Shown: one piece after another, positions 1 to 58,475 of the stretch
Layout of the letters: each line of letters starts with the position of its first letter
How positions within the stretch are numbered: the stretch's first letter is position 1
Assembly (NCBI GenBank): GCA_030374765.1
Contig: JARGXX010000002.1
Coordinates: forward strand, 372,001-436,000
Direction of reading: 5' to 3'
Source: Agarophyton chilense
Taxonomy: Eukaryota > Rhodophyta > Florideophyceae > Gracilariales > Gracilariaceae
Length of the DNA stretch: 64,000 bases
The notes under the pieces: generated by a model
What the model saw: only the letters and a program-made list of their open reading frames with translations
Told to the model about the DNA's origin: nothing
The model's database searches: none
Made by a program: the position numbers and the translations under genes

Positions 1-787
1 CACGGGTCGTTCACCAAAGCGGATCCAATGGAGGGGATCGCAGGTGAGAGCTCCACAAGCCGGACTGGAGGACTCTCGATTGCAGCTCAATGTTTCGATA
101 CGCCGATTTTGCGCCCGAAGCGCGCATTGCGCCGAATGTGGTATATCTCAATCATTTGATACGGCACCAAATTACTTAATCGAGATTGAGTACGACGTTC
201 TCAACGGTGATAGTCTCAATTCGGAATATAACGATTTCAAATGAAGCAGAACTCCACACGGAAAAGAGATATTTGGAATTAGAGAGCTGTGTAACGCACA
301 CTGCGTATACCGCGCTAATAACCTATATTTACTTCGATGAGTGTCTGGATGTACGATTATCCTTTACCGTTAGTACGGGCTTGCAGATATCTATTTTTCA
401 CTTCTGCGGGAGGATAACTGTAATAACTAACCGGGGAAGACGCTAGTATATCAGCTTGACGAATGCAGAATAGGCTCCGAAACTCGTTTTCGTAAAATAT
501 CCTGAAATCGAGTTGTCTCGAAAAGTGGTACCGATCTTCTAGTCGGTGCTGTATATGGCGTGTTCCAGAATGCCGCTGGGAATGTGTCCATCGTGTAAAT
601 ACTTTCCTATTAACGTTTTATAGCAACTGGGGCAAACACGGGCGCTTGAGCGATTAGTTTCAATGTTATCGAGAAGATCTCTTTCAGAAAAATCTGCGAA
701 ATTGGAATAACTCCACTGAGCACGACGAGACTGAGCTCGAATCACACTGCTAGAAAAAACATTAGCCGCTTTCAAAATCGAAGCCAC
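1..787 (-). pseudogene. Decayed antisense ORF (aORF) of a B-type chromovirus at the window edge
   Basis: The minus strand encodes broken pieces of the same unknown protein found antisense in elements A, B, 1 and 2. The clearest piece is near 590-612, where KYLHDGHIP matches KYVHDGHFP of element B (about 15,030) and SYVEDGLLP of element 1 (about 39,000). Bases 1-250, read in antisense, are also visibly similar to B at 15,430-15,640. Frames shift and stop several times, so this is a relic. It lies just upstream of the 3' LTR at 1,118, the position the aORF occupies in element 1. No function is known for the protein. The rest of this element lies outside the window. Confidence 0.65.
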
Positions 788-12089: not shown

Positions 12090-13680
12090 GTACCTAGAAT
12101 TCAGAAATTACCTTGCATCAGGAACCCACACCACCGTTTCGGGGTCACTACCTCCTTTTGGATTTGGATGGCTACCACCTGATTGGTTGCCTAAAACACG
12201 GGTAATCTGGACCGCGCGCATCTCGGTAACGTCACCACTGACAACGCTCTTTCCTATCCTCATCTTGCGAAGGAAGTAAGAGATCTCTTTCTTCTATCCC
12301 GCTGAGGCGTCACTGGCCTCTCCTGAAACGTAGGCACTCCACCCGGAACACCCACAAGCAAAGCTGGGTATTTAACACGACCTACATTGGTAGGAGGTGC
12401 CCTTGCAAGGATATCTCGCCGATATATGGCAGTACAGGGTTACCTGCGTTGGGTGGCTGCTCCAGAGACCGGAGTTCAACTGCCTCAGTGGACGCCACTC
12501 CATCGTTGAGTTCGTTATCTAACAACGGGTCATTACCGTTGTAGACGGTTTAATGCTCTTCCACGTTCCCAAAATTGACCAGATTTCTCTCGGATATACG
12601 CCGCAGAGCGAACCGAAGTTCGTTGGCATTTTACCAAGAGATATGCTAATCCTTCCAGGGGTTAAATATATGAAGTCACCAGCGAGCAGAATTCAACGTC
12701 CTGCTGACATGTCCTGCGCCTGGCCACCGGTTGCACATCCGCTCTGTGAAAAAAGAACTGAGGCCTAATCAACCTGGTCCATAAAATCGAGAAGTCTCGC
12801 CACTTCTTGCGCTCAGCCCATAGGCTTTGGTTTCACCACCTAATGGGATGCCCACGTCCAAGTGACAAATGCCGGCGCGAACTCTCAATCAAATTAACTA
12901 AAGTCTATAGTGGTCATAAACGTCCCAGAGGATGAAAACTGCGGTGCGGACGTCCAACTCGGTGACGACAACAAACAAAAGTCCGGAATGACAATCCTCG
13001 ACACGACAGGACCCGTAATACCTAATGACCGGAGGTAACAAAATGTAACAGACTCGAAATACCTCGAGATAATACCACCAATCAAGATGGAATGGGAACA
13101 TCCCCACTGCTTCCGTTGGCTGCGCGAAAGCGTTTGATCTCCACGTTTTGATATTGGACCATTTGACCGAACCGGGATCACGCTCGCCACTCAAAGCGTA
13201 TCATCTCCAAGAAGGTCGCTTTCCCGAGCCGTCTCATTAATAATAATTCAGCCCTAATGATCGGTCAGACCAACCAATTGGAGTCCTGGCACGCAACAGG
13301 AAGGCCTTTCCATGGCAACGTCTCCAAACCCTCTTAGCGGGCAAGATATCTAAATTCACTTTAGATGCAGAATAGCTTAACATCCGAACCCAAACCGTAT
13401 GTGATGTGATATTAAATAGGAGCACTACAAAGCCGTTGATGCCCACGGAGGACAAATTCTGCATGAGCGAAAGCTACCGATGAGCTCGCGTGACGGCTTA
13501 TCTTGTGATACAAAACCGCCACACGGTTCCGCCACACGGCTCTTCTAATCCCAAAAAGTAGTTGCAAGGACCAAAATATCTCCCGAGAGCATCTCGCTTC
13601 CATCCGTATGTGATGCAAGATTAAGAGACTAAGCGACAATAACACATTCTTTATTGTCTTCTCTGGGGGCTGGCACAGCA
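12090..13680 (-). pseudogene. aORF relic of element A
   Basis: Antisense to the element, it reads LPPVIRYYGS near 13,030 and VFILWDVYDHYRL near 12,900-12,935, against LPPCIYYIGS and HLLWDAHDHFRIW of the element 1 aORF. Further along, NDPLLDNELNDGVASTEAVE near 12,520 matches DDPALDNYMPAPSGVLPVEP. The open stretch 12,898-13,194 is the best preserved. The N-terminal part is cut off by element B at 13,780; a possible continuation lies at 24,957-25,130. Confidence 0.7.
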
Positions 13681-14960: not shown

Positions 14961-16361
14961 ATGGAACTATTCGCTCAAATTCCCAGGTTTGTTCCAGTTG
15001 ATCCAGTTGATATTGGCGATGAAGCGTTGATGCGAAAATATGTACACGATGGGCACTTTCCCAGAAACATTCCGCAGCACTTAATGTATGGAACAGACTT
15101 GAAGATCCATATCGCTTTGTAAGAAAACGCGATTGCGCAATATTCCACGGAAACGATTTTCGAAGCCTGGACTTGGTTCGTGAAGCTGATGTGCAGGCGA
15201 CTTCACCGCTTCATATGTACGATTATCCTCCCGCAGGACTGTGAACTAGACACTTGGAAATCCCTCACTACCAATGAAGGTTAATGGTACATGAAGACAT
15301 TGATCGTCTTTGATGTAGGCGATTGGCGCGGCATAAGAAGTGTGCGTAACGCAACTGTCTGATTCCAATAATCTCTCATCCGTGCAAAGTTCCAAATCAT
15401 TCGTAATCTTGATATTCTACTTTCGATACTCACCGTTTGAAACGTCGTACTCGATCATGATTGGGTTACTTGGTGCCGTATTAAATGATTGAAATAGATC
15501 GCATTCGGTTGAATGTGCGCTTTGGGCGCAACATCAGCACATCAAAACATTTGGCTGCGATCGAGATTCCTCCAATCAGCCTTGTAGAGCTGCCACCTGC
15601 GACACCCCATTAGATCAGCTTTGGTTAACAATGAGTCGTCGAGATAGTGAACTGTGTTTCATACAGAATTTATCGCCAAATTGGCCGTGTTTTTCCTGTA
15701 GGATGCTTATGATGTCTTTAGAGATTGAAACATGTCGCCCACAGCACAAAGGCATGCGAGAGAACTCGACTATATCCTTACAATGAGATCAGCTGTAAAC
15801 CATGCAAAATTTCTCCATTTTGTGGATATGATCGAAAGCATCGAATGGTTTGGAGCGCCAGCTGAACAATACGCTCGCGAAACAGGTACAATACGCCATT
15901 ACCATTTTACTGGGGGAACAGCAAGTGCTAGAGAGTTCGTGTAGTACGGCCCCTGGACGCACCGGTTGGCTACCTCTGAGCAAGCTCGCGTTCCTCGGAA
16001 GAACCCACGTGACATGCCACCGAGCGAGATCACTGGATACCTGTACGAGGCCCCTCCATGAGATATCAGAGAGAAACCTTACGAGGAAGCATCTGGAGCG
16101 AAGGCTGAACTCAGTTTCGAGGAAGAGCCCGAACTGCTGAGTGGGACTGCTTTCGTCAATTGGTCTGCAGCGGCGGGAGATGCTCAACAATATTTCCATG
16201 GGGTTTCAAAACAATGCAGTACAGTGCCGGTCAAAAATCCTAGCTGGGATGCTCTGAGGCAATTCTTTTTAGACGCGGGCTTTCCCGTGGACCAAGTCGA
16301 AGGTGATCGCGCACAACTTTTTGCGAATGGAGGTGACTGCCCACCTTTTCAATACTTCTAG
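14961..16361 (+). pseudogene. aORF relic of element B (antisense to the element)
   Basis: The + strand reads ALMRKYVHDGHFPRNIPQH near 15,020, ISLVELPPATP near 15,570, FVDMIESIEWFGAPAEQYA near 15,820, and a long frame from 15,973 to the stop at 16,359-16,361 with only one internal stop. That frame includes SEITGYLYEAPP and NPSWDALRQFFLDAGFPVDQ. All align in order with the element 1 aORF (ELIDSYVEDGLLP, FAELPPC, ILDVIDNTQWDRVPVENQPA, GHPTGFIYTDDY, PQADGVRQGLVNAGIPIPPG). The LTRs of B and element 1 are unrelated to the eye, so the protein frame is kept better than most of the DNA. Confidence 0.75.
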
Positions 16362-28682: not shown

Positions 28683-29598
28683 TGTAGAGCAACGCCCAGA
28701 TAGCGCATACTTGAAGATGCAACTCATAGAATGAGGGTTGAACCCTCCGAGGGTTATGACTATGATCCCCTCTAAGGTGTGCTGAGGTGGCACGGTTTTC
28801 TGGTTAGAGTTCGCCTATGAAGGGAAGATTCGGATGGCCCATGGTTGGATTGGCCCCGTGATACACGTGGCTTAACTCCGGCACCGATTTTCGGATATTT
28901 GTTAGAACGTTGGACTTTTGGGCCCTGACAGTGGGATCTCCACGTGTAGGGCCCTGAGAAGGTGTGCACTACTGTAGAGTTTAGTTAGTGGGCCCTACTT
29001 AGGGAGACGAGATCTGACAGTCCGAAGCTCAGAGTAAAGGGTAACCAAGGTTGGTCTTCGATACCTTTAGAGGTTCTTCGTCGCCATCGTTTCGGACTTA
29101 CAACCCGGAACGGGCTCTGGTTAGCAACGCCTGCGTAGGGACACGACTCCACTTGGAGAGTGCCCACGTTTGGGTTCCGTGCAACCACCCCCTTGGGACC
29201 GCTCAGACGACCTGCGTGCACGATACCCCGTGGGGGTTCTGCTTACTTGTTGCGTGCTTTTTGTGTTTCCTTTCGAGGACAGGTTTTCGCCCCTGTATTG
29301 GGTTTCTTTTGTTGTTTCGCCCCTTTTCTGGTTCTCGGGTCCGGTGCCTGTTAGTGCCCGACCCTCGCCCCGTTTTTCCTCTTCGCCGGATTTTCCCCCA
29401 TTCTTTGGGATACCCATACCCATTCCCGATCCAACGGTTTCTACCCCTCACCTCCGTCGGTACTGCCGGAATCCCCCGTGGGAGTTACACCCCACACTAC
29501 GGGTGGAACGGAGGGCTCTGTCTCTGAGTCTGCCTCCCCCAGGGAGCAAGGCTTCGAACACCTTGAAAGCACTTCCCGTCGCCGGGTTTTGCTCCACA
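28683..29598 (+). repeat. 5' LTR of element 1 (916 bases)
   Basis: TG...CA bounded and the same length as 39,548-40,463. It carries the promoter and polyadenylation signals of the element by family rule, but I see no certain TATA box. ORFs inside it (for example 29,051-29,527) recur in every LTR copy and are not genes. Confidence 0.95.
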
Positions 29599-29618: not shown

Positions 29619-29825
29619 TCCGTTCTCGGACTTTTGGGTTGGTCATCCACGTGTTGGAATATCTCTTGGAAGAGGAAGCACCGTCGTGAAGATTTGTTGT
29701 AGTGGTCCCCTTTGGAAATGGTGGAATTGGTTTTTATTTTTGTTTTGTGTTACGTCATCCGTTCTCCGGGAATCTCGTGATCGAATTTCATCGTTACCCC
29801 GAATCGTCGGTGTCGTGTCTGCAGC

Positions 29826-31856
29826 ATGTCGCCGCCTACCCGTGGTTCCAGGACTGGATCGAACCGTCAAGCGGATTCAGTGCCCCCGGCCCCGCCTAGG
29901 TCGAAAAGCTCAATTCCCGAAGTCCGGAACGATTCCGGTATCGATCCGGACACTCGGAGAGCACCCTCAGTGGTTTCAGGTCCTCGAGAGGTCGTGGCTG
30001 TGGGCCCAGCTCCAGTGGTGGAGACCCCCTCAGCAGCACCCCGAAGTCGGGCCGACCCTGAATTACAGCGCCTGGAGGCTCGAATCGATATCGCCAACGC
30101 GGCTCACGTCGAGCTCCTTCAGGAGGTTACTACCCTCCGCCGCAAGGTGGAGGACGCCCAGGTGCGGGTAGTCGCCGATGACCTTCGTAGCCTGAGGAGG
30201 GATGTGAACTCCTTTTTGGAAAGCTTTGGTACCCCTGAGGTCTTTATCCAGGAGTACCGGAGCGTCGTGGAGGAACACCGCGTGCAAGCGGAACGCTTCC
30301 GAGCTCGGCTGGACACCCTCGAGGCCATTATCCGTATGGACGGAGACACAGAAGCCTCGAAGGATAAACCCGACGTTGCGGAAGACGAAGAACACCGCTC
30401 CGCTAAACGGGACCGCCACAAGTCCAAGAAGAGGGTTCACCTCCAAGAGGATTTATCGGATTCCGATCCCAATCGCTTGTCATCGAGTTCGTCCTCCGAA
30501 TCTTCGGATAGTGAAGATGGACGCCGGTCATCCCGGGCGACTCGGTCGAAGGCTACTCACACCTCTCAAGGGACAATCCGTACCCGGAAGAAGGGTTGGA
30601 AACACCTTGGATTGAGGGAGCTGAAGCCGACGAATCCTCTCTATCGGAAGCTGCAATCGTACCGCTATTACCGGTTGGATAACCCTTCGGGAGATCGAAC
30701 ATCCCGCGGAACGGGTAAGGTCAAGGACTACATCAAAAGGCTGAGCATCACCCTACAGAAGAGGGAGTTCACAGGAACAGACCCAATTCTGGTGCTCGAT
30801 TTCCTTGCGAGGTTCGTCCAGGAGGCTGACATCCTCGGTATGAGTGAAGCGCAAGCGTATCTTGCATTAACCTATTTCCTAAAGGGGATGGCTGAAGACC
30901 AGTTCAACTCCGTCCGTGGATCATCCCGAGCCTCGGAAGGGGGAGTCACGTGCTGGCCCGAAGCGGTGCAGTACCTCTTGAGGTCATACGCTACTGGAAA
31001 TGCGATTCAGGAAGCAATCTTTGCATTAAGGGATACGCGGCAGAAGCCGATGGAAACCAAAACGGTGTATCCTACTCGCTTGAATAAAGCGTTTCACCGA
31101 TGCGGGAATGTATTCCCCGCCTACAAGAGATGCACCATGTTTGTGGATGGTTTGGACCCCTCGATAAGGGCATTGGTTGCCCGACATCGGGAAGAGAAGC
31201 GCAAGCTGACCTTCTTGGAACTGGTTCAGTACGCCCAGGCTGAGGGGGATACTCTCCGTGCCCGGCAGAACCGAAAGAGTCGGCCGACACGTGCACTCCT
31301 CGCCGATGGAGGTAACTCGTCTTTGTCACTCGCAAGAGGCCCTGCCCCTGTGGGGGTCAATGATAACATTCACTTCATGGGAAGTAACCCCGAATCTATG
31401 GGTACGTCTGAGTTGCCGTCGACATCCGCTCCGACTACGGATGAAGACCCTGCGCTCTATACCCAAGGACGGAGGGTGCCAGCCGCATCGCTACCTTTTG
31501 CGAATACCGCTGCTCGGTTCTCTCGCCCCGGATGGAGGGATACAGCACCACGTCGCGTGGATTCACGTCCACAACCGAACCCGGCAGAGCTGATTTGCTA
31601 TTTGTGTTACCTCCGTGGTCACAAAGCACCAGACTGCACATTTCCCCTGCTGGAGGGTTCACGAATTATCGCTCAGTACGAGGCTCTGACCCCTGAGGAG
31701 AAAGCTCGAGTCCCGAGTAGGTCCTATGAGGAACAAAGGATACTCCGAGCTCACCTTGCTGACAGGGATACAGAACTTGTACCCGCGAACGGGGAACAAC
31801 CGGTCCCCTTCGAGGCAGCTGCACCGAATTCGGTGGGGTCCGCTTCGAAAAACTAA
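29826..31856 (+). CDS. gag: Gag polyprotein of element 1 (676 aa)
   Basis: Structural protein of the virus-like particle. The start at 29,826 is chosen because element 2 has an ATG at the equivalent place and its Gag is then exactly the same length. Seen in order: a basic/Pro-rich N terminus; a probable coiled coil around residues 80-175 (Leu/Glu/Arg rich); an acidic Ser-rich run near 220-240; the capsid-like core around 295-480 (LVLDFLARFVQEADILGMSE, RLNKAFHRCGN, DGLDPSIRALVARHREE); and a CCHC zinc knuckle at 591-604 (CYLCYLRGHKAPDC, CX2CX4HX4C) that would bind RNA. The frame is fully open, so this protein may still be made. It ends at a TAA directly behind a slippery-looking site. Confidence 0.93.
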   Translation: MSPPTRGSRTGSNRQADSVPPAPPRSKSSIPEVRNDSGIDPDTRRAPSVVSGPREVVAVGPAPVVETPSAAPRSRADPELQRLEARIDIANAAHVELLQEVTTLRRKVEDAQVRVVADDLRSLRRDVNSFLESFGTPEVFIQEYRSVVEEHRVQAERFRARLDTLEAIIRMDGDTEASKDKPDVAEDEEHRSAKRDRHKSKKRVHLQEDLSDSDPNRLSSSSSSESSDSEDGRRSSRATRSKATHTSQGTIRTRKKGWKHLGLRELKPTNPLYRKLQSYRYYRLDNPSGDRTSRGTGKVKDYIKRLSITLQKREFTGTDPILVLDFLARFVQEADILGMSEAQAYLALTYFLKGMAEDQFNSVRGSSRASEGGVTCWPEAVQYLLRSYATGNAIQEAIFALRDTRQKPMETKTVYPTRLNKAFHRCGNVFPAYKRCTMFVDGLDPSIRALVARHREEKRKLTFLELVQYAQAEGDTLRARQNRKSRPTRALLADGGNSSLSLARGPAPVGVNDNIHFMGSNPESMGTSELPSTSAPTTDEDPALYTQGRRVPAASLPFANTAARFSRPGWRDTAPRRVDSRPQPNPAELICYLCYLRGHKAPDCTFPLLEGSRIIAQYEALTPEEKARVPSRSYEEQRILRAHLADRDTELVPANGEQPVPFEAAAPNSVGSASKN

Positions 31857-31912
31857 ACTTGGGAGTCTCCCCTGCGGGAGGGGCGTCTTCTAAGCCGGAG
31901 TTGAAGACGCCC
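31847..31912 (+). promoter_or_regulatory. Possible -1 ribosomal frameshift site between gag and pol
   Basis: The last sense codons of gag are AAA AAC followed by TAA, preceded by G: heptamer GAAAAAC at 31,847-31,853. The pol frame is -1 relative to gag and is open across this point. Downstream there is a short hairpin (CTCCC 31,867-31,871 with GGGAG 31,876-31,880) and a perfect 10-base-pair stem (GGGCGTCTTC 31,881-31,890 with GAAGACGCCC 31,903-31,912). The heptamer is not the canonical A AAA AAC, so efficiency is uncertain. Confidence 0.55.
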
Positions 31913-33223
31913 GAGGCGCTCCAGCTTCGCTCCCCAGCTGTGACTATCCTTTCAAGGAAAACGGCTGACACCGACGTTAAATCGGGATACTTTAGTGTCC
32001 TCCGTCGCCCGTGGATACGGTCCCGTAATCTCCGTATTCCAGATCGAGTTATGGTAATGGCCAAGCGGAATGATAAAGTATTCGCCGACTTCGGCCTGTC
32101 CAACCAGTTTATGGTTCGTCAAATATCTGTCCTGGATACAGGAGCCGCTCCCAACTTAAATCATGTTGAATTGTTACCCCCGCTGCTCCGGGTTCAAGTT
32201 CGTACCGGTCCACGTTTGGATATCGCCGATGCGAACAACAACCCGCTACGGACACTGGGTACAATTTCCCTCATGGTGAGGTTCGGCTCCTATCTCGTTC
32301 AGCTAGAGTTTATTGTATGCAAGTCACTTGCAGCACCAGTCTTACTGGGTTGTGACTTTTGTGACCGCTTCGTGGAAGCCATCCGTCCTCGGAATAGAAC
32401 TGTGGAACTGGAAGACGGGTCTACGATCCCAATCGTTCGTAAACCCTTACAGGGAGCAGCGCGAACACGCGTTCCTCTCCCTGTCGCGCAGGAATCTGTG
32501 AAGAAGGACCCGGTGTCTACACGGGTAAAGGTTGCGAAGTCAGTGGCTATCCCGCCAGAAACCCAGGTTTGGGTCACAGTTGTTACCAAGCAAATTGGTG
32601 TGCATGTGGTACAACCGAACCCGTCTCTGTATACGCGGCGTCAACTCGCCCTTGCGAATGGGGTTGTCTCCGTGGAACCGGATAAACCTTTCAAGGTTTT
32701 GGTAGCCAACTTTGGAAAGACAACGCCGCATTTGGTCAAACACCAGACCCTGGGTTCTGTTCTTCCACACCCGCATGCGGTCGTACCTACAAATATCTCT
32801 ATCGCAGAGGTCCTTGGTGTGGCGGACCCTAAGGAGGGGGAGGACACTGCCGAAATCGCGGATGACGGTGAGCATACGACTGCAGCTCCACACGCTGAAC
32901 ACTTTAAACCTCAGAAGGTTACGGCCCCTATCACAGGAGCAGACCAGACGGATCCTGTTCAGGAATTGGAGAAATGGGATCTCAACCATGTACCCGCATC
33001 TCATCGGGAGAAGCTGAGGCAGATGCTTCGTGAATTTACCCCCATGTGGGGTGGTTACCTTGGAACTATTGGGACTACAGAACACCGCATCGACTTGTTA
33101 CCGAACACTCGGCCTATTGCCCAACACCCTTACAGGGCTGGACCGAAAGCTCGGGAAGAGGAGAAATCTCAGGTGGAGAAGATGCTTAAAGCGGGCGTAA
33201 TTGAACCTGCCCAGTCCGCTTAG
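31859..33223 (+). pseudogene. pol: pol of element 1, first part: protease to the start of RT
   Basis: 454 codons in the -1 frame relative to gag, open back into the gag end. The aspartic protease active site DTGA is at 32,135-32,146 (VLDTGAAPNLNHV). Downstream are CDFCDRFVEAIR and TIPIVRKP, then the leader of RT (HRIDLLPNTRPIAQHPYR). It ends at TAG 33,221-33,223. The same frame continues directly with ASPVVLVPKPDG, a place where RT proteins of this family usually have a Trp before ASPVV, so the amber codon is most simply a TGG-to-TAG change. Without readthrough the copy makes no full RT. Confidence 0.9.
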
Positions 33224-35527
33224 GCCTCACCAGTGGTGTTAGTTCCGAAACCGGATGGATCGTGGCGTTTCTGCATCGATTACAGACGCCTGAACGAGGT
33301 AACCATTAAGGATGTGTACCCAATCCCTCGGATGGACGAATACATCGACTCCCTTGGGAGCGCTACTGTTTTCTCTACCCTCAACGCCAATTCGGGGTAC
33401 TGGCAAGTCCCTAGTAGGGAGGAAGATCGAGACAAAACGGCTTTCGTGTGTCATCAAGGACTTTTCCGATTCCGGAGGATGCCTTTTGGGTTGACAAATG
33501 CCCCCGCAACGTTTCAACGGGCGATAGACATTCTGTTGGCTCCATTCAAGTGGAGGACGTGTCTAGTGTATTTAGACGACATTATTGTCTTCTCCAACAA
33601 CCTGGATGTCCACCTCGAACACGTCAGGGACGTAATGAAGATACTCCGCGACGCGGGAATCACCTTGAAACTCAAGAATTGCGAGTTTTTCACCGATTCG
33701 GTTAAGTATCTGGGTCATATCATCCGTCTCGGACAGCTTTCAATCAATGAAGTACGAGTGAAATCCTTGAAGGAAGCAAAACACCCGAACACTGAAACGG
33801 AGTTGCGATCCTTCTTAGGTCTGTGTAACGTGTATCGCCGATTCGTCCCGAACTTTGCGGATATTTTAACCCACCTCAACAGGCTCCTGACGAATGGACA
33901 ACCAGTTGAACTGGAACCTTTTGGCGACGCGGAAGCGTCTGCCTTCACGGCACTGGTGAATGCCGTAACATCACCGCCAATCTTGGCTCTACCCAATCCT
34001 GGGCTCCCTTACGAAGTGGACACCGATGCTAGTGCAAACCAAGTAGGGTGTGCACTGTTCCAATCCTTTGAGGATGGTGAACGTCGCCCTATTGGGTACT
34101 GGTCACGTTCCCTGAATGTCCATGAAAGGAACTACTCGGTCTCCGAGAAAGAAGGTTTAGCCGTTGTGTGGGACTTAGCTACAATTCGCCCCTATCTGAT
34201 GGGTACTCGTTTCAAAGTCCATACGGAACACGCATGCTTGCGTTGGCTCCTGGAGATCTCAGAATCCTCGGGCCGCCTTATGCACTGGCGTCTCCGACTG
34301 TCGGAATTCGACTTTGAGATCCTGTACAAGAAAGGGAAGCTGAACACTCAGGCTGATGCACTATCCCGCTTGGGAACCACAGCGGAAACGGAACCCTACG
34401 AGGACGATGACATCCCATGTTTTATAGTATCGGACCTCGAGGGAGGAGCTCAACCGCTGACGGATGATGTTTGTGACGATATACTCGTCAACGAGAGTCT
34501 GGATTTGCCGACCGGCTCTTTTATACCTATCTCTCCAGAGGAGATGATACGCGAGCAACAGCTCGACCCATTCTGTACACGGATTCGGGCTCGCCTCAAC
34601 GGAGGATTTCAGTTACCTTTCGAGGACGACGATCAGGGTTACCTAATCAGGACCGTTGGACCTCGCCCGAGAATAGTGGTGCCGCACACCCTACAACAGA
34701 GGGTATTACACCTCACTCACTATGTGAAGGTTGGCACCCACCCCGGGGGAAGAAAACTGTACGTCCCGTTGAGAAGGGACTTTTACTGGCCTGCAATGGC
34801 ATTCGATTGTTACGCCGTCAGACGGGCCTGCGCCAATTGCGCCAAAAATGACGTCAAACTTCGGAAGCACTCTAAGAAGCTGACGCTGTTCCCGGCACGG
34901 GCTCCACTCGAATTCGTGGCCATAGACATCCTAGGGGAGTTTATCAGAACGCCCCGAGGTCATCGGTATCTGCTTGTCATTTCTGACAGATTTTCTAAGT
35001 TAACGAGAACTGTGCCGCTGAAGCGGATCACCGCCGCTACAGTCGCGCAAGCATTCGTGACCCATTGGGTGTTCGTATATGGACCGCCGGTGCAGTTGTT
35101 ATCCGACAACGGAGGGCAATTCGCATCCAAGTTCTTTCAGGATGTATGTCGAATCCTTGATGTAAGGAATTTATTTGTTACTCCGTATCACCCTCAGGGG
35201 AATGGCCAGGTGGAGAGGTTTAACCGCACGATACTCAACGCTTTGAGATCGTATGTTGCGGATCACCCCCAAAAATTGGGACTTGTACACAGACGCTATC
35301 ACGTATGCATACAACACCCAGGTACATCGGGTTACATCGTTATCCCCATTCGAACTGGTACTGTCGAGGACACCGCCGCCGGTCGCCATCGAGGCTCAAC
35401 CGACGCTGTCGACGTACCCGTCACCGGGATTGTACCGAGAAGCCTGGAAGGAGTGGCTTACGAAGATGGTGCCGATAGCCCGGAAAGCAATGGACAAAGC
35501 TCAACGCGCCTACAAGAAGGACTTTGA
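33224..35527 (+). pseudogene. pol: pol of element 1, second part: RT, RNase H, integrase core
   Basis: Open frame after the amber codon. RT: SWRFCIDYRRLNEVT, FRRMPFGLTNAPATFQRA, and the catalytic YLDD at 33,568-33,579. RNase H: EVDTDASANQVGCALF near 34,015, SVSEKEGLAVVW near 34,140, and VHTEHACLRWL near 34,220, where the usual catalytic Asp of TDH is Glu (relics A and B still have Asp). Integrase: HHCC finger around 34,700-34,845 (ending CANC), then catalytic AIDIL, LLSDNGG and GQVERFNR for the D,D,E triad. In the run CCCCCAAAAA at 35,266-35,275 one extra base shifts the frame, and the true continuation is the frame of 35,253-36,362. Confidence 0.92.
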
Positions 35528-36362
35528 CAATCGGGTTCGCAAACCTCTACCTCAGGTGGAGCCCGACGACTTCGTCTTCCTTCGAAAGGAATACTACAAT
35601 CCTGAAAAGGAACGTAGGCACAAGCTTTCGCCAATTGTGGACGGACCCTATCGTGTGGTTTCTGTAGACCCGGACACGGTGGTATTGGATATCGCTAACC
35701 GCCACGAACGGATCTCCACGGACCGCATCACACGAGCGCCCAACCCATATGTGGAAGTGGTGTCGGCACCAACGCCCTCCACAGAGGATGATTCAACGGA
35801 AGTTAACCCGTCAGGCGGAGATTCGAACACCCGCCCCGTTATACTTCCGCACCCGGAACGTGGTTTAACCGACCTACCGGAAACTTCGGATACTCCCGAA
35901 CTCGGGCCCGCTCCCTCAAGGGCCCAGTCAACGAACTCTTACATAGTTACTCCCCCACGGGAGGTAATCAAGCCTCCTGGCTCTCCGCCTAAGGAGGGGG
36001 AGGAGGACTTAGTTCCTTCGCAGCACGATGTTTCGGCGTCAGCCAGTCGCCCTAACAGGGAATCTAGTTCTCACAGTGAAACGGCGAGCCCGACCGAGCC
36101 GGCGACAGAGAAATCACAACCCCAGCGTATGGGTAGCGACATCACCGCCGACCCAGCTGAGCACGACGTCAGAAAAGATGACGAAACCTCGCCTAGGGAG
36201 AATCGTGTGGAGAACTCCGCACCCGGAACGCCTACAGAGCCGACGATCATCCGCCGCCGCGGACGAGACACTGAGGTGTCGCACACTCAAACCCCGCTTT
36301 CTCGGGAACGAGCTGTGTCAGCGGACCCGCACGGGGACGATCTCGACGACGAGGTTGACTAA
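35253..36362 (+). pseudogene. pol: Integrase C-terminal part and Pro/Ser-rich tail of element 1
   Basis: The overlapping frame that carries on integrase after the one-base shift: NWDLYTDAITYAYNTQVH, then the GPY/F module (SPIVDGPYRVVSVDPDTVVL) near 35,630-35,690. About 200 residues of low-complexity acidic, Pro/Ser/Thr-rich tail follow. It ends at TAA 36,360-36,362; element 2 has AAA at that codon, so the stop is a later change, although further stops follow in both copies before the chromodomain. Confidence 0.88.
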
Positions 36363-36929
36363 ATTTGGCTCTCCGTTATGGAAGGGGAATAGGAACTCCT
36401 ATGGAGACACTGGAAGCCTCAGGAATGGGAAAGAAATGAGTGAGACCCGTCGGGAACAGCTCAGGAGAGTGCTAGCGCGTGTCGAAAGCGCCACCTCACA
36501 TCCGCATATGCAGATTTTCCCGCACAAGGAACGGTCACCCCACACGGGGCGCCTGCGCATTTGTGTGGCACACGTCGAATGGCACCGAGCCAATCAAAAG
36601 GCTCTGACGACCAACCGTCGCGCAAACCGCCTCCGTCGCACGGCGCGTTGCACGGGAGCAACCTTCGTCCCCGTAGCTCGGGTTGACGTTGAAGTCTTAC
36701 CCCCCTGAGATTGGAGACGCTACCGCGTCACGGTTTCTCAACCGTCATGGAATCTAAGAACAACGTTGTTATCGGGAAGATTTCAGCTTTAAGAAGAACC
36801 GAAAAGTGGGCCGTTTTGACTACGTAGACGGAAGTTACAACGTAGCCCACAGGCCACTCGGCGCCGTTTGGACGAAGTGCTGAGACCCGCTCGAAACACG
36901 GAAAAGAACCCACCGGGGTGTGTCTAAAC

Positions 36930-37206
36930 CCTACGTTGACACCCTCAAGGGAACTAGAGCGTTCCAAGATGGAAGAGAAGCCCGAACAGGGAAAAGTGTA
37001 CCCGTAGGAATTCGTTATCGATCGCATCGTGCGTCACATCTACACCCCCGAGGGAGAAGTCCGCTACCAAGTCCGATGGTACGGATTCTCGCCTGATGAG
37101 GATACAGTGGAACCCATTGAGCACCATCCAAGGTCTAAGGTTTTCTCCTATCACCGACGCGCTCGGGTAACCTTGCCTCCAAGTCTGGATCGTGCCCAAG
37201 TCGGGT
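36930..37206 (+). pseudogene. Chromodomain of element 1
   Basis: The frame reads EFVIDRIVRHIYTPEGEV, YQVRWYGFSPDEDTVEPIE. It has the chromodomain pattern, with Phe, Trp and Phe at the usual aromatic-cage places, but Val instead of Trp in the T-W-E-P motif. A TAG at 37,005-37,007 precedes it; element 2 has CAG there and an open frame. Expected as the C terminus of integrase, where it would bind modified histone tails and bias integration. How it is joined to integrase across the broken 36,360-36,930 stretch is not clear. Confidence 0.8.
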
Positions 37207-37379
37207 AAGCCACCACGGGAACTGGTGTGGATGGGACCTCGAAGTAAGGAAGATGTTGGACCTCTGAAGAGGAATTGAGGAGAGTATCCCGAAGAACACG
37301 TATTGAGAGGGAATGTCTACTGGCCCTCGGCCTAGCGCCGTTAACCGGGGAACACAGCACCGGTTATCGGGACAGTTTA

Positions 37380-37560
37380 TGATGAAAAAAAGGAAAAGAA
37401 GACCCACGAAGTGGAGAAGAAGATTAAGAAGAAGATTGGACCCTAGGAAGGGAAGAAGATGAAGACGAAGATGATGAAGATCCTAAGAAGGAAGAAGAAA
37501 AGAAGTAGAAGTTAAGATCCTAGGAAGGAAGAAGAAAAGGAGTTATGCAAATATCAGAAG
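37380..37560 (+). repeat. Purine-rich tract between pol and aORF of element 1
   Basis: About 180 bases of almost pure A/G with repeats such as AAGAAGATTGGACCCTAGG. It lies exactly between the two converging coding regions. It could be a second polypurine primer for plus-strand synthesis, a transcription terminator for either strand, or slippage-prone filler. Confidence 0.7.
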
Positions 37561-37609
37561 TTTACTATTGTCGCCAAGCTATGGACTCCACAATTGCCCG
37601 AAGGCGGAA

Positions 37610-39466
37610 CTACGGAAAGCCCGAGGAGGGACCCGCCCCACCGTCGGGATTCTGACCCTGATGGTACGCCGAGGCGAAAGCCAACATCTGGCTCACATCC
37701 ATCATACCCGGGGGAATCGGAATGCCCGCGTTCACGAGGCCTTGTCGCACACCATCCGCTTGCGGAGTGGCAACCGGCGCCTGCGAAAGGGTGTTCACAC
37801 CCCACCCGGGGGGAGCAGATGGACCGCCACCGGATGCATTCGCCGCCGCAGCTGAAGTCGTTCCCACTGGTTGGAAGGGTGCAGATGGCTCCACAGGGAG
37901 TACTCCACTAGGAGCTGGCATGTAGTTATCCAACGCTGGATCGTCCAGGTCTACTGGAGGCTCGTATTCGTAATCGTCGGTATAAATGAACCCCGTCGGG
38001 TGTCCCACCGGCATCGGTCGAGGCGAGTCCATCAGCGCCCGTGCTTGCGCCGCGCTGATGCGAACCCCTTCGAAGGGATTGTAATAGACCCAGTTACCGG
38101 AGCCCAGATCTTACCGGCCAGGAGACTTGTCTAGCGCGGATCCTTCCCCTGCGGGCTGATTTTCCACTGGAACTCGATCCCATTGGGTGTTGTCGATCAC
38201 GTCCAAGATTGGATACAGGTCCTGCACGTTGCTGGCCGAACCCAACGCTGGGACAAGGTCGATCTGACGCATGATGGTCCGTAGCATCGGAGGAATATAC
38301 CAGATACGGAAATGGTCATGAGCATCCCAGAGGAGGTGCGCCGCTACGCGGGCTGCCCACTCGGCTGCAACGAGGGCCCAGTATCCCGAGTTCTGGTCGT
38401 GCATCAAACGAGACCCGATATAGTAGATGCATGGGGGCAGTTCAGCAAAGCACCCTCGGGGGACCTCGACCTTACTCCACCAAGCTGGAAGGGGCACGAA
38501 TCGCCCAACCTTCGCCGTGTTACGGATACGCTCCAGTTCCACGTGAGGATACGGGACAAGGAACCCGAAACGGGAGCGCGAGCGGCGCTCGAAGCGCACG
38601 CGTCGATCGAAGCCATACTGGGTAAACTGCCGTTGAAGGTACCTGAATTCAGCCCGAAGGATGGGACGACTCCATTGGGGCATATCTTCTCGGAGAGGAA
38701 AACCCGGTCCGCGGAACTCGGCTTCGGGAAAGGCTGCCAGGTTATCCCCGTAGGAGACCTCACCGAACGTGCGGTAATAGGCGACATCGAACCCGTACTC
38801 CGGGAAAACCAGATGGTCAAAGCGTGACCTCTCCAATCGCTGGTAGGCCAGAGCCGCCATCGCTGCGCGCGCCTTGTCCAGGGACTCCCCGCGACCGCGG
38901 TATAGATACTAAGGCTCTATGGCTACCCGCGCCCTCCAATCGGGAGAACGTACAACCTCGACAGGTAGGCCACCCGGCAATAAGCCGTCCTCCACGTAGG
39001 AGTCGATGAGCTCATCGTCGCGAACCGCTGTCGGATGGAACCACGGAGCGCGGGAATATATCACCGGATCGGTAAGGGGACTCCACCTTCGAAAGGATTC
39101 GTTTGAGATCCAACCTCTGGAGTTTGCTACCAAGGGCATCGCATGAGCGGAGTTCCACGCCACCGCGTTAATGTCCAAATCCTCATGAGGATGTCGGTTG
39201 CTCGCCGAGGCGGAAGGTTCGGTACCTGACGGAGCCGCATCCAAACCGGAGAAATATCCACCCTGCTGGGGAGCTTCGTTGTCCGCCGGCGCGGAGGCCG
39301 ATGGCCCCGAGAGTGGGTTGAGGACGTATGGGTTTATTCCCTTGAGAGGGCTGGTTGAGACTGCTGTTGTGAGAAGTTGCTTATCGCCGAAAGTCGGAGG
39401 AGTAGAAGAAAGTTGTACCGATGTGCCGGTTTTGTGGCGATCCTCAGAAGTGGTGAAGGACCCCAT
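37610..39466 (-). pseudogene. Antisense ORF (aORF) of element 1, unknown protein of about 618 codons
   Basis: One minus-strand frame runs from ATG 39,466 (MGSFTTSEDRHK) to the stop at 37,610 with only two internal stops: TAG 38,909-38,911 and TAA 38,111-38,113. Element 2 has TAC at the latter place. Around them are long stretches without stops. The N-terminal third is Ser/Pro/Ala-rich and polar, the middle is Arg- and aromatic-rich (FDHLVFPEYGFDVAYYRTFG, LLWDAHDHFRIWYIPP), and the C-terminal third is Pro/Gly/Ala-rich (PSAPPGWGVNT). I see no signal peptide, membrane span, zinc finger or enzyme motif. The ATG is about 80 bases from the 3' LTR, so an antisense promoter in that LTR would be needed. 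Homologues lie antisense in elements 2, A, B and at 1-787. Confidence 0.85.
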
Positions 39467-39534
39467 TGGGAGAGAAGTATATGTAGTGACCAGAAAGCGA
39501 GACACCCGCGGCTCGGAATGTTCTTCCTCGTCTT

Positions 39535-39547
39535 AAGGAGGGGGACA
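39535..39547 (+). other. Polypurine tract of element 1
   Basis: AAGGAGGGGGACA directly before the 3' LTR, the usual primer site for plus-strand synthesis. Element 2 has the same motif at 57,499-57,512 (minus strand). Confidence 0.85.
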
Positions 39548-40463
39548 TGTAGAGCAACGCCCAGTTAGGGGATACTTGAAGATGCAACTCATAGAATGAG
39601 GATTGAACCCTCCGAGGGTTATGACTATGATCCCCTCTAAGGTGTGCTGAGGTGGCACGGTTTTCTGGTTAGAGTTCGCCTATGAAGTGAAAATTCGGAT
39701 GGCCCATGGTTGGATTGGCCCCATGATACACGTGGCTTAATGTTGGCACCGATTTTCGGATATTTGTTAGAACGTTGGACTTTTGGGCCCTGACAGTGGG
39801 ATCTCCACGTGTAGGGCCCTGGGAAGGTGTGCACTACTGTAGAGTTTAGTTAGTGGGCCCTACTTAGGGAGACGAGATCTGACAGTCCGAAGCTCAGAGT
39901 AAAGGGTAACCAAGGTTGGTCTTCGATACCTTTAGAGGTTCTTCGTCGCCATCGTTTCGGACTTACAACCCGGAACGGGCTCTGGTTAGCAACGCCTGCG
40001 TAGGGACACGACTCCACTTGGAGAGTGCCCACGTTTGGGTTCCGTGCAACCACCCCCTTGGGACCGCTCAGACGACCTGCGTGCACGATACCCCGTGGGG
40101 GTTCTGCTTACTTGTTGCGTGCTTTTTGTGTTTCCTTTCGAGGACAGGTTTTCGCCCCTGTATTGGGTTTCTTTTGTTGTTTCGCCCCTTTTCTGGTTCT
40201 CGGGTCCGGTGCCTGTTAGTGCCCGACCCTCGCCCCGTTTTTCCTCTTCGCCGGATTTTCCCCCATTCTTTGGGATACCCATACCCATTCCCGACCCAAC
40301 GGTTTCTACCCCTCCCCTCCGTCGGTACTGCCGGAATCCCCCGTGGGAGTTACACCCCACACTACGGGTAGAACGGAGGGCTCTGTCTCTGAGTCTGCCT
40401 CCCCCAGGGAGCAAGGCTTCGAACACCTTGAAAGCACTTCCCGTCGCCGGGTTTTGCTCCACA
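39548..40463 (+). repeat. 3' LTR of element 1 (916 bases)
   Basis: Same length as the 5' LTR with scattered substitutions (for example ATAGCGCA against TTAGGGGA near the start). Followed by CCACC, against CCTCC before the 5' LTR. Confidence 0.95.
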
Positions 40464-44903: not shown

Positions 44904-45987
<1,084 letters not shown>

Positions 45988-47127
45988 ATGCCGCGAAAAG
46001 CCGGCGGCAGTCGCCGCAAGCGGCGCACGCACAAGCTGGACACGCCCACCGCCGACGCCATTCCGCGCAGCTTTGTGTTCCGACGCGGCCACGTCCCCGC
46101 CGCCATCCGCGATCTGGTGCCGTGTCTGCGCGCCGCGCTCATGCCGCACACAGCGCGCCGCCTCAAGGAGCGTCGCCTCAATAGCATTCGCGACTACGTG
46201 GCCGTCGCCACGCAGATTGGCGTCTCGCACTTTTGGATCCTGTCGGCCACAGCCACGTCACCGTATCTGCGACTGGCAAGCGTGCCGCAGGGCCCCACGC
46301 TGACGTTCCGCATCGTGCAATACTCGCTTTCAGCCGATGTGCGTGCCACACAGCGTCGCCCCATCGCGCTGGAGCACGCGCACTTTGAGCAGCCACCGCT
46401 TCTTGTGTTGAACAACTTCAATCACCCCAGCGCCGAAGCGAAGCTCATGGCGGAAACTTTTCGCCATTCTTTCCCCTCCATTGATGTTGGAGATGTGCGT
46501 TTATCTTGTTTGAAGCGCGTGCTGCTTGTTCATCGTGATGGGTGCAGCGGCGATGTGCACATTCGGCATTACGCGCTCAGGGTGCACCAGGCACGTCTTT
46601 CGAACGCGGTGCGCAAAATGGTGAACAAGCGACGCATTCCGAACATGACCAATCTCACTGACGTGTCCGAGCTGATGCACGGTGCGGCGGGCGTGTTCAG
46701 CTCCGACTCTGAGATGGAGGAGAATGCAAACGAGACGTTGCAGCTGGCGCAAGCTGTGCAAAACGTGAGCAAGGGAGCTAACAGCAAGATAAAGTTGGTT
46801 GAAGTGGGGCCCAGGCTGAGGCTGCAGCTTGTTAAGATTCAGGGCGGACTTTGCGACGGCGCAGTGCTGTACCACCGCTTTGTGAGCAAGAGCAAAGATG
46901 AAGCTCAGCGGGACGAGCACAGAATACAAGGCAGAAAGGACCTGAAGCGCAAGCGGCGCGAGGAACAGGAGGCCAACGTGAAGCGAAAACAACACAAGAA
47001 ACAAGCGAAAAGGGAGCGACACAGAAAAAGTGTGCAGGCGCTACACGCAGCGCAGAGCGCTGGCGACGGGGATGTGGAAGGTGGAAACGAGGCGGATGAC
47101 GAAGGGGAGGAAGGGCATGTGGGGTAA
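45988..47127 (+). CDS. SSF1: SSF1/Peter Pan ribosome biogenesis protein (Brix domain, 379 aa)
   Basis: Nucleolar factor for 60S ribosomal subunit assembly (27S pre-rRNA processing). The start MPRKAGGSRRKRRTHK is chosen because the basic R-T-H-K leader is the family N terminus. Then follow PRSFVFRRGH, LMPHTARRLKERRLNSIRDY (about residues 50-70), ISHFWIL-like GVSHFWILSATATSPYLRL, PQGPTLTFRIVQYSL, PPLLVLNNF, KRVLLVHRD, IRHYALRV (Brix domain about residues 25-290), and a late VEVGPRLRLQLVKIQGGLCDGAVLYH block. The C terminus is a Lys/Arg-rich tail ending acidic. The length is slightly shorter than the yeast protein. Convergent with the CCDC6-like gene, 227 bases apart. Confidence 0.96.
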   Translation: MPRKAGGSRRKRRTHKLDTPTADAIPRSFVFRRGHVPAAIRDLVPCLRAALMPHTARRLKERRLNSIRDYVAVATQIGVSHFWILSATATSPYLRLASVPQGPTLTFRIVQYSLSADVRATQRRPIALEHAHFEQPPLLVLNNFNHPSAEAKLMAETFRHSFPSIDVGDVRLSCLKRVLLVHRDGCSGDVHIRHYALRVHQARLSNAVRKMVNKRRIPNMTNLTDVSELMHGAAGVFSSDSEMEENANETLQLAQAVQNVSKGANSKIKLVEVGPRLRLQLVKIQGGLCDGAVLYHRFVSKSKDEAQRDEHRIQGRKDLKRKRREEQEANVKRKQHKKQAKRERHRKSVQALHAAQSAGDGDVEGGNEADDEGEEGHVG

Positions 47128-47354
47128 AGTGGGTAGTGTTTTGTTAAGGAGACAAGGGGTTTATTGTTATTAGCAGCACTGCAAATTGTAGTAGAGACAT
47201 GACGTGTAAACGCCTAAAGCAGACAGTGTAACCTGTACATGCTGCGCGTCATTGTACGTCATTGTGGCTTGTGGTGGGTGTGCGAGACAAGCGGGAATCG
47301 AAGACACAAAACGGTTTGACGACGAGGACAAGCATATAAGGGGGTATGTGTGTG
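47128..47354. terminator. Convergent 3' region between SSF1 and the CCDC6-like gene
   Basis: 227 bases holding the 3' ends of both genes. No clear AATAAA is seen. The stretch is AT-richer than its neighbours, as expected for 3' flanks. Confidence 0.35.
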
Positions 47355-47966
47355 CTATTGCGATTGTGATGGGTTGGAAGAAGGTTGGTGCAGGGCGGAT
47401 TGCGATAGGGTGGCCGGCGCAGATAGTCTGTACGAACCGTTCCTGGAGAGGGTGCCATCGGCAGAACGCAAACTGAGCGCCGGTGATGACGTGGGGGTGA
47501 GAGCACCGGGGGTGGTGGAGCGAGACAAACGCTGAACCTTCCTCTCCAATTCTTGTTTCTCATTTCGCAGCGCTTCCAGTTGCTTGTTGAGTCGGTTGAC
47601 AATGTACTCATTCTCTTCTTCTGCAGCGGCAATGATTCGGTGTTTCTGACGCTGCAACTCTTCCAGACGTTGGCTGAGGGAGTTGGTGACCCACTCGGAA
47701 TCGGACTCTGAGGCGCGTGCAATCTGTTCCTTTTCCTGTTTGAGCTCGGACAAGCGCTTCATGAGTTTGTTCGAAATCATCTCCTCCTCCTCCTCGATGC
47801 GGATCTGGTTGAGCGTGGACTCGCGACGCAGCTCGCGACAGTGCTCCTCGGCGGCCTGGCGGCGGTGTTTCTCCCTGGCCAGGTCGAGCTTGAGGGAGGA
47901 GAGTTGGCGGCGCAACTGTCGGATCTGCAGCTCCGGGGCGGGGTCGGCGGCGCCGTCCTCACTCAT
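47355..47966 (-). CDS. CCDC6-like coiled-coil protein (203 aa)
   Basis: Predicted cytoplasmic coiled-coil protein. Start MSEDGAADP at 47,966; a further in-frame Met 14 codons upstream gives a non-family extension. Residues 12-150 are coiled coil. Inside are three imperfect repeats typical of the CCDC6 (DUF2046) family: EEEEMISNKLMKRLSELKQE (59-78), SDSEWVTNSLSQRLEELQRQ (88-107) and EENEYIVNRLNKQLEALRNE (117-136). Each has an acidic run, an aromatic or hydrophobic pair, N, then L..(K/R)(L/Q)..L. The C-terminal 50 residues are Ser/Thr/Pro-rich and probably disordered. Human CCDC6 is more than twice as long and has a fourth block. The molecular role in protists is not known to me. Confidence 0.85.
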   Translation of the reverse strand: MSEDGAADPAPELQIRQLRRQLSSLKLDLAREKHRRQAAEEHCRELRRESTLNQIRIEEEEEMISNKLMKRLSELKQEKEQIARASESDSEWVTNSLSQRLEELQRQKHRIIAAAEEENEYIVNRLNKQLEALRNEKQELERKVQRLSRSTTPGALTPTSSPALSLRSADGTLSRNGSYRLSAPATLSQSALHQPSSNPSQSQ

Positions 47967-48829: not shown

Positions 48830-48865
48830 ATGTCGGCCCCCAACGACCATGCCGCCAACGGCGAT

Positions 48866-48915
<50 letters not shown>

Positions 48916-57577: not shown

Positions 57578-58475
57578 ATGGGGTCCTTCACCACTTCTGA
57601 GGATCGCCACAAAACCGGCACATCAGTACAACTTTCTTCTACTCCTCCGAATTTCGGCGATACGCAACTTCTCGCAGCAGCGGTTTCGACTAGCCCTCTC
57701 AAGGGAGTGAACCCGTACGTCATCAACCCACTCTCGGGGCCATCGGCCTCCGCGCCGGCGGACAACGAAGCTCCCCAGCAGGGTGGAGATTTCTCCGATG
57801 CTACGGACCATCATGCGTCAGATCGACCTTGTACAGGCGTTGGGTTCGGCCAGCAACGTGCAGGATCTGTATCCAATCTTGGACGTGATCGACAACACCC
57901 AATGGGATCGAGTTCCAGTGGCAAATCAACCCGCAGGGGAAGGATCCGCGCGAGACAAGTCTCCTGGCCGGTACGATCCGGGCTCCGGTAACTGGGTCTA
58001 TTACAATCCCTTCGAAGGGGTTCGCATCAGCGCGGCGCAAGCACGGGCGCTGATTGACTCGCCTCGACCGATGCCGGTGGGACACCCGACGGGGTTCATT
58101 TATACCGACGATTACGAGTACGAGCCTCCAGTAGACCTGGACGATCCAGCGTTGGATAACGACGTGCCAACTCCTAGTGGAGTACTCCCTGTGGAGCCAT
58201 CTGCACCCTTCCAACCAGTGGGAACGACCTCAGCTGCGGCGGCGAATGCATCCGGTGGCGGTCCATCTGCTCCCCCCGGGTGGGGTGTGAACACCCTTGC
58301 GCAGGCGCCGGTTGCCACTCCGCAAGCGGATAGTGTGCGACAAGGCCTCGTGAACGCAGGCATTCCGATTCCCCCGGGTATGACGGATGTGAGCCAGATG
58401 TTGGCTTTCGCCTCGGCGTACCATCAGGGTCAGAATCCCAACGGTGGGGCGGGTCCCTCCTCGGGCTTTCCGTAG
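57578..58475 (+). pseudogene. aORF of element 2, shortened and frameshifted
   Basis: Starts like element 1 (MGSFTTSEDRHKTG) up to APADNEAPQQGG. There 959 bases are missing, with CTCCG at both former ends; the frame changes, so translation from the ATG runs into unrelated residues. The second half (PPMLRTIMRQIDLVQALGSA to GAGPSSGFP) is open in another frame, without the stop that element 1 has in this part. Differences from element 1 here include several silent or conservative ones. Confidence 0.8.

What the first reader, a model, noticed from the sequence alone, without database searches (positions are those of the whole stretch)
37610..39466. Long antisense ORF between chromodomain and 3' LTR in a chromovirus
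Element 1 has a minus-strand frame of about 618 codons with only two internal stops, one of which element 2 lacks, exactly filling the space between the purine tract and the 3' LTR. The predicted protein shows no domain I know. Antisense ORFs between pol and the 3' LTR are known in some plant Ty3/gypsy elements of the Tat group; in a chromodomain element of a protist I do not know of one. If expressed it would need an antisense promoter in the 3' LTR.
Basis: partly seen in the sequence, partly recalled or inferred. Interest (0 to 1): 0.87.

Follow-up and report, generated by a model that had tools for sequence, protein, structure and literature searches.

The report
Antisense gene in red-algal retrotransposons
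Jumping genes in a red alga carry a large extra protein gene written backwards between their polymerase gene and their right-hand end; the protein is conserved across several distantly related families, resembles nothing I could find, and is probably a helper gene rather than a chance reading frame.

Summary
The minus-strand frame 37610-39466 (618 codons, two stops) lies between a chromodomain stretch and the 3' LTR of a Ty3/gypsy element. It is uninterrupted in many genomic copies: 12 of 20 fetched copies, 56 of 144 scored hits. The host is a red alga: phycobilisome-linker and LHC genes lie on large contigs. Homologues at 32-50% amino-acid identity occur in three further families. Antisense position is shown for two of these and for three decayed elements in the window; the fourth family's locus was too short. 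Between families, codon position 2 is most and position 3 least conserved in all 6 pairs; dN/dS is 0.27-0.42 in 4 pairs, with synonymous sites near saturation. Pfam, PDB, PHROGs and fold searches gave nothing significant; the models were poor. Antisense ORFs at this place are known in plant Tat/Retand elements and fungal Boty, so the arrangement is known; the protein family and its red-algal, chromodomain-bearing setting appear new within my searches. Transcription and function are untested.

The parts
28683..29598 (+). 5' LTR of element 1 (916 bp)
   Evidence: Direct repeat with 39548-40463, 98.4% identical, TG...CA ends
29781..31856 (+). gag frame of element 1
   Evidence: 691-aa open frame; by eye a Ty3-type gag with a CCHC-like knuckle (recalled motif); no Pfam hit over cut-off
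31763..35527 (+). pol frames of element 1 (protease region, RT, RNase H, integrase); interrupted in this copy
   Evidence: RVT_1, RT_RNaseH, Integrase_H2C2 and rve over cut-off in the 33224-35527 frame; other copies have longer uninterrupted frames
36996..37160 (+). chromodomain stretch downstream of the long pol frame
   Evidence: 54.5% identical to the family-2 chromodomain; the homologous stretch in element 2 matches PF00385 over its cut-off
37380..37545 (+). purine-rich tract with a 37-nt repeat, between the two convergent genes
   Evidence: Up to 83% purine per 100 nt; TRF 37442-37543
37610..39466 (-). antisense ORF (aORF), 618 codons, with stops at 38111-38113 and 38909-38911 in this copy
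   Evidence: uninterrupted in 12 of 20 fetched copies
39467..39547 (-). 81-bp leader between the aORF ATG and the 3' LTR
   Evidence: Read directly
39548..40463 (+). 3' LTR; would have to hold, or lie next to, the antisense promoter (inferred)
   Evidence: no expression data
57578..58472 (+). aORF remnant of element 2 (residues 1-73 and 391-618; the middle is deleted)
   Evidence: tblastn
12814..13534 (-). decayed aORF relative in older element A (+ strand), antisense; chromodomain stretch of A at 11759-11913 (+)
   Evidence: tblastn E 3e-12 and 4e-7, 29-36% identity; chromodomain
15012..16325 (+). decayed aORF relative in older element B (- strand), antisense; chromodomain stretch of B at 16718-16635 (-)
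   Evidence: tblastn E 6e-15, 22% identity over 459 columns; chromodomain
3..206 (-). aORF fragment of older element C (+ strand), antisense
   Evidence: tblastn E 1e-8, 41% over 68 residues; strand of C from its alignment to B

Best explanation
The frame is a genuine accessory protein gene of chromodomain-bearing Ty3/gypsy elements in a red alga. It is encoded on the strand opposite gag-pol, between the chromodomain stretch and the 3' LTR, tail-to-tail with pol. Shown: the protein is alignable over nearly its whole length in four families that differ at 50-68% of residues, and conservation follows its minus-strand codons; antisense position is shown for three of the four and for three decayed elements. 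Inferred: it is transcribed from an antisense promoter in the 3' LTR or the 81-bp leader, as a transcript separate from the genomic RNA. Its product, a conserved core of about 380 residues with a basic motif between low-complexity tails, would act in trans on the element's own expression, RNA or chromatin, like nuclear antisense products such as Grande gene23 or HTLV HBZ. The two copies of this family in the window are broken (two stops in element 1, a large deletion in element 2).
For: Uninterrupted copies: 56 of 144 scored hits have a frame of at least 618 codons with no stop in the matched segment; 12 of 20 fetched copies have no stop inside, 18 of 20 show the same ATG (the other two were trimmed at that end) and 20 of 20 the same TAG. 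Antisense place: 76 of 78 aORF-RT pairs within 9 kb are on opposite strands, 3.3-5.4 kb apart; the two same-strand pairs have the RT on the wrong side. In 12 of 12 loci of families 2 and 3 (2 and 10 loci) the chromodomain stretch lies on the opposite strand. Further families: 149 of 150 scored hits at 42-66% identity to the element A fragment (the other is that fragment itself), many with frames of 560-681 aa, and a family with a 611-aa frame. Coding signature: identity at codon positions 1/2/3 is 0.63/0.68/0.38 (families 2-3) and 0.50/0.58/0.34 (1-3), with the same order in 6 of 6 family pairs; dN/dS 0.27-0.42 in 4 pairs. Indels outside the search stretch: 2 distinct in 21.2 kb of aORF, against 13 in 18.0 kb of LTR and 6 in 42.5 kb of pol. 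HK(S/T) motif soon after the first Met in families 1-3 (that Met is present in 5 of 6 family-3 rows).
Against: No RNA or protein evidence. Within family 1 the N/S ratio is 0.93-0.97 outside the stretch used to choose copies and 0.47-0.52 inside it; in families 2 and 3 it is 0.83-1.07 outside, and 0.55 and 0.90-1.00 inside. So the within-family deficit of replacements may be ascertainment. dS between families is near saturation (pS 0.67-0.69). The indel contrast is not clean: 36363-37160, with the chromodomain stretch, has 11 distinct indels in 14.5 kb. Antisense place of the fourth family is not shown. No domain or fold gives a function: Pfam, PDB, PHROGs and Foldseek have nothing significant, and the models are poor (mean pLDDT 34 and 48). 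The regulatory role is analogy only.
Confidence: 0.7

Rival explanations
1. The product is a structural or particle protein (an Env-like or second coat protein) rather than a regulator.
For: High copy number and rapid evolution like gag: aORF-to-A/B identities of 22-39% are not far from gag-to-A/B identities of 28-49%.
Against: No transmembrane stretch in one protein of each of four families (highest 19-residue hydropathy 0.93-1.44); no profile similarity to the element's own gag. No fold match to capsids, but from a poor model, so this weighs little.
Confidence: 0.15
2. What matters is the antisense RNA (for instance dsRNA-mediated self-limitation), and the frame is a by-product.
For: Antisense RNAs without coding capacity exist in other retroelements (PMC7264820, passages); any antisense transcript would overlap the sense RNA.
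Against: Protein-level conservation between four families with the codon-position order 2>1>3 is not explained by selection on RNA alone.
Confidence: 0.08
3. It is a host gene captured recently by one element and amplified with it.
For: The protein shows no similarity to gag.
Against: It sits antisense at the same place in three families and in three decayed elements of the window, so any capture is older than the families. A host copy outside elements could not be searched for properly because element copies fill the scored lists.
Confidence: 0.05
4. It is a chance open frame produced by base composition or by the coding constraint of an overlapping sense gene.
For: The stretch is G+C-rich, 0.55-0.62 in four families, which lengthens frames.
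Against: Shuffles reach 382 codons at most in 500; the other five frames of the stretch in L002 hold 9-22 stops, so no overlapping sense frame runs through it; conservation follows the minus-strand codons.
Confidence: 0.02

Closest known systems
Antisense additional ORFs between pol and 3' LTR (aORF-3R) of plant Tat/Retand-type Ty3/gypsy elements: Grande gene23, RIRE2, Retand (PMC7264820 sections 3 and 5 read, other passages seen; PMC11963269 passages seen)
   Same: Same place (pol to 3' LTR), same antisense orientation, present in many copies of a family and in several families, function unknown; in Grande a promoter upstream of gene23 and nuclear localisation are reported (passages).
   Different: Retand is a non-chromovirus lineage of flowering plants, and nearly all its clusters carry the TRP28 domain (PF04195) in the antisense ORFs. 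Here the elements carry a chromodomain stretch, the host is a red alga, and none of 17 aORF proteins matched PF04195 or any other Pfam family convincingly (best E 0.061).
Fungal Boty / BcGypsy1 antisense gene brtn (Zhao et al. 2011, Virology; known to me only from its title in the reference list of PMC8365987, and its mention in PMC7264820)
   Same: An antisense gene in a Ty3/gypsy element outside plants.
   Different: Sequence relationship not tested: I had no brtn sequence and no fungal collection. Whether Boty bears a chromodomain I did not check.
Antisense genes of deltaretroviruses (HTLV-1 HBZ, APH-2; as described in passages of PMC11963269, and PMC7264820)
   Same: Antisense gene with a promoter in the 3' LTR; nuclear product. 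Used here as an analogy for mechanism.
   Different: No sequence relationship claimed or tested; a different class of element.

Membership tests
aORF-3R organisation class (antisense additional ORF between pol and 3' LTR) | ORF lies between the end of pol and the 3' LTR | tested here: met
   Element 1: chromodomain stretch ends 37160, ORF 37610-39466, LTR from 39548
aORF-3R organisation class (antisense additional ORF between pol and 3' LTR) | Antisense to gag-pol | tested here: met
   76 of 78 aORF-RT pairs opposite; 12 of 12 chromodomain loci opposite; not shown for family 4
aORF-3R organisation class (antisense additional ORF between pol and 3' LTR) | Kept in most copies of a family and conserved | tested here: inconclusive
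   12 of 20 fetched copies without a stop; conserved between four families. But copies were found by the aORF itself, and 74 of 150 RT hits were not paired with one, so the share of elements that carry it was not measured
Retand / Tat lineage | TRP28 domain (PF04195) in the antisense product | tested here: not met
   17 of 17 proteins scanned without a PF04195 match at E up to 1
Retand / Tat lineage | Non-chromovirus element, no chromodomain | tested here: not met
   Chromodomain stretch present
Retand / Tat lineage | RT in the Tat clade | not tested
   No RT tree made
Chromoviruses | Ty3/gypsy pol with a chromodomain behind the integrase | tested here: met
   RVT_1, RNase H and rve over cut-off; PF00385 32.0 against 25.1 bits in element 2. 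The family-2 frame scanned gave no Pfam match at E 0.01, though its chromodomain stretch is 53-58% identical to family 1 in full-length matches
Chromoviruses | Chromodomain in one reading frame with the integrase | tested here: inconclusive
   In the family-1 copies the long pol frame ends upstream of the chromodomain stretch, except in L015, which has a deletion; joining by frameshift or splicing was not examined
Chromoviruses | RT phylogeny inside the chromovirus clade | not testable with these tools
   No collection of eukaryotic RTs here; Ectocarpus and oomycete chromodomain Gypsy elements are reported outside the clade (PMC12477816, passage), so the chromodomain alone does not settle it
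Envelope-like ORFs | Sense orientation and transmembrane segment | tested here: not met
   Antisense; highest 19-residue hydropathy 0.93-1.44 in one protein of each of four families
HBZ-like antisense regulators | Antisense transcript from the 3' LTR, nuclear product | not testable with these tools
   No RNA or localisation data

The most novel reading that the evidence does not exclude
Chromodomain Ty3/gypsy elements of red algae share an ancient protein family of their own, gained once before these families split and kept ever since as an independent antisense transcription unit fired from the 3' LTR. It would be a trans-acting regulator or anti-silencing factor, evolved independently of the plant Tat antisense genes and the deltaretroviral ones, that helps these elements reach very high copy number.
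Probability: 0.35. Interest if true: 0.75.

Novelty: new variant of a known kind. Interest (0 to 1): 0.56.

Why it matters
In the papers I saw, antisense genes between pol and the 3' LTR are described mainly from plant elements such as Grande and Retand, fungal Boty and deltaretroviruses, and their function in retrotransposons is open. A large, conserved antisense protein in several families of chromodomain elements of a red alga suggests that the arrangement arose again in a distant lineage. It also offers a compact host genome (80 Mb) with many natural copies in which antisense transcription, localisation and effect on silencing can be tested.

Tried and rejected
Structure: full length mean pLDDT 34, core 48 with a better first 95 residues; Foldseek best E 2.7 (PDB) and 0.79 (viral), not meaningful; profile against PDB best E 2; comparison with gag nothing. 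Within-family N/S first looked like purifying selection in the aORF (0.75), but the mirror frame on the plus strand looked alike (0.70), and the signal sits in the stretch by whose score the copies were ranked (0.49 inside, 0.95 outside). It was repeated with three real copies as reference and in families 2 and 3: I do not use it as evidence for selection. Pairwise dN/dS among open copies was 0.42-0.83 in family 1 (28 pairs), 0.42-1.04 in family 2 (10) and 0.40-1.22 in family 3 (36), open to the same objection. The scans are capped (144 of 1605 and 150 of 1240 candidates scored), so copy numbers are lower bounds; 74 of 150 RT hits were not paired with a hit and I do not know what lies beside them. 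In one search the pol alignment left out 3 of 20 copies. Host identity: fungal Zn_clus search empty, but no control rang, so it carries little weight; 9 LHC matches and phycobilisome linkers on six contigs besides the plastid-like C39 point to a red alga. In the listings and passages I saw, no paper reports such a gene in red algae (searches; open-access PMC only; few of these targeted red algae).

Full report
Observation. The minus-strand frame at 37610-39466 is real: 618 codons from ATG to TAG with two internal stops in this copy. In 500 dinucleotide-preserving shuffles of the same stretch of copy L002 the longest frame in six was 382 codons. It lies in a Ty3/gypsy element with 916-bp LTRs at 28683-29598 and 39548-40463 (15 mismatches), gag and pol frames and a chromodomain stretch at 36996-37160. 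Element 2 (56585-63337, minus) lacks the middle of pol and about 950 bp of the frame.

Host. The 79.8-Mb genome has 9 light-harvesting-protein matches and 13 phycobilisome-linker matches, 7 on a plastid-like contig (C39) and one on each of six other contigs. From established biology (recalled) this combination marks a red alga. The neighbouring host genes (ARF, Brix, adenylosuccinate lyase, Myb, inositol polyphosphate kinase) have long uninterrupted frames.

Copies. A search of the own genome with a stop-free 265-residue piece gave 144 scored hits of 1605 candidates, 94-97% identical apart from the piece itself. 56 of the 144 have a frame of at least 618 codons and no stop in the matched piece. 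I fetched 20 of them (alternate ranks of the best 40) as 7.3-kb stretches. 12 of 20 have no stop inside the frame; the same TAG is in 20 of 20; the same ATG is in 18 of 20, the other two being trimmed by the alignment. Of 78 aORF-RT hit pairs within 9 kb, 76 are on opposite strands at 3.3-5.4 kb; the two same-strand pairs have the RT on the wrong side, so they look like neighbours.

Other families. tblastn of the intact protein (copy L002) against the window found three older decayed elements, A, B and C, each with a relative antisense to the element. Element A appears interrupted by B. A search with a 100-residue piece of A gave 150 scored hits of 1240 candidates; the query's own place apart they are 42-66% identical, many with frames of 560-681 codons. 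Twelve diverse loci were fetched (2 of family 2, 10 of family 3): in 12 of 12 the chromodomain stretch is on the opposite strand. A piece of B led to a fourth family with a 611-residue frame; its locus is too short to show its pol or chromodomain, so its antisense place is not shown. The four families share 32-50% amino-acid identity.

Selection. Between families identity by codon position is second > first >> third in 6 of 6 pairs, for example 0.63/0.68/0.38 for families 2 and 3. Nei-Gojobori dN/dS is 0.42, 0.39, 0.27 and 0.27 in the four pairs computed, with pS 0.67-0.69 and so near saturation. The integrase between families 1 and 3 is more constrained (pN 0.21-0.23 in 18 pairs, pS saturated). 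Outside the search stretch the aORF has 2 distinct indels in 21.2 kb, against 6 in 42.5 kb of the pol frame, 2 in 17.7 kb of 35247-36362 and 13 in 18.0 kb of LTR; 36363-37609, which includes the chromodomain stretch and the repeat-bearing purine tract, has 27 in 22.4 kb, 11 of them in 14.5 kb before 37160. So the aORF is as free of indels as pol, but the chromodomain side is not, and the contrast is not a clean coding/noncoding one. Against selection, within family 1 the ratio of replacement to silent changes, corrected for sequence context, is 0.93-0.97 outside the stretch used to rank copies and 0.47-0.52 inside it; in families 2 and 3 it is 0.83-1.07 outside, and 0.55 and 0.90-1.00 inside. 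Pol, a certain coding region, gives 0.99 for changes seen once and 0.83 for shared ones.

Protein. About 110 low-complexity residues, a conserved core of about 380 residues (largely invariant ERR.RSRFG and invariant ELPP...Y.GS in the 11 rows of families 1-3), then an acidic low-complexity tail. No transmembrane stretch. No convincing match in Pfam (17 proteins), PHROGs (4 proteins) or the PDB by profile. The AlphaFold2 models are too poor to use as a whole and Foldseek gave nothing significant. It is not similar to the element's gag. The first Met is supported by an HK(S/T) motif shortly after it in families 1-3; 5 of 6 family-3 rows have that Met.

Mechanism. The gene is tail-to-tail with pol, so its mRNA cannot be the genomic RNA; a promoter in the 3' LTR or in the 81 bp beside it is required (inferred). 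Since LTRs are near-identical, the same promoter in the 5' LTR would fire outwards into host DNA. By analogy with Grande gene23 (own promoter, nuclear product; PMC7264820, passages) and the antisense proteins of deltaretroviruses (passages), a regulator of element expression or silencing is the most likely role. This step is analogy, not evidence.

Comparison. The arrangement is known: aORF-3R in plant elements and in fungal Boty (PMC7264820 sections 3 and 5). A remembered survey of plant Ty3/gypsy extra ORFs (Steinbauerova and colleagues; abstract recalled, not read here) found chromoviruses to have extra ORFs only in the 5' region of grass elements. The product here lacks the TRP28 domain that characterises Retand. 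I therefore call it a new variant of a known kind: chromodomain-bearing elements, a red-algal host and a protein family for which I found no relative. Whether these are chromoviruses by RT phylogeny was not tested, and chromodomain elements outside that clade are reported (PMC12477816, passage).

Noticed in passing
window 4078-25909 and 13780-24958: Nested old elements: A (+, LTR-like repeats at 4078-4756 and 25234-25909) appears interrupted by B (-, LTRs 13780-14496 and 24237-24958); C ends at 1832 with an LTR related to B's.
   Followed up: partly
window 36363-37160; L009-L028: In the family-1 copies the long pol frame ends several hundred bases before the chromodomain stretch (except L015, which has a deletion), and the stretch between is rich in indels: the chromodomain may be joined by frameshifting or splicing, or be a separate frame.
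   Followed up: no
window 37380-37545: Purine-rich tract with a 37-nt repeat between the convergent pol and aORF; a similar tract (78-80% purine per 100 nt) lies at the same place in 9 family-3 loci, weaker in 2 of family 2 (65-66%). Possible terminator, or an E/K-rich tail of a sense frame.
   Followed up: partly
G000 contig C39: Plastid-like contig in the assembly: phycobilisome-linker frames, with an 892-aa frame present twice in the same orientation (near 39.2 kb and 224.9 kb), perhaps a contig longer than one circle.
   Followed up: no
window 44904-54353: Cluster of host genes with long uninterrupted frames (ARF, Brix, adenylosuccinate lyase, Myb, inositol polyphosphate kinase), some with runs of one amino acid (Ala, Gln, Asn).
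   Followed up: no
window 56585-63337: Element 2 has lost the middle of pol and the middle of the antisense frame, yet keeps both LTRs: a deleted, non-autonomous-looking copy.
   Followed up: no
window 39546-39548 (-): An ATG formed at the edge of the 3' LTR, upstream of the aORF ATG and, by my reading, in another frame; could be an upstream ORF in an antisense mRNA.
   Followed up: no
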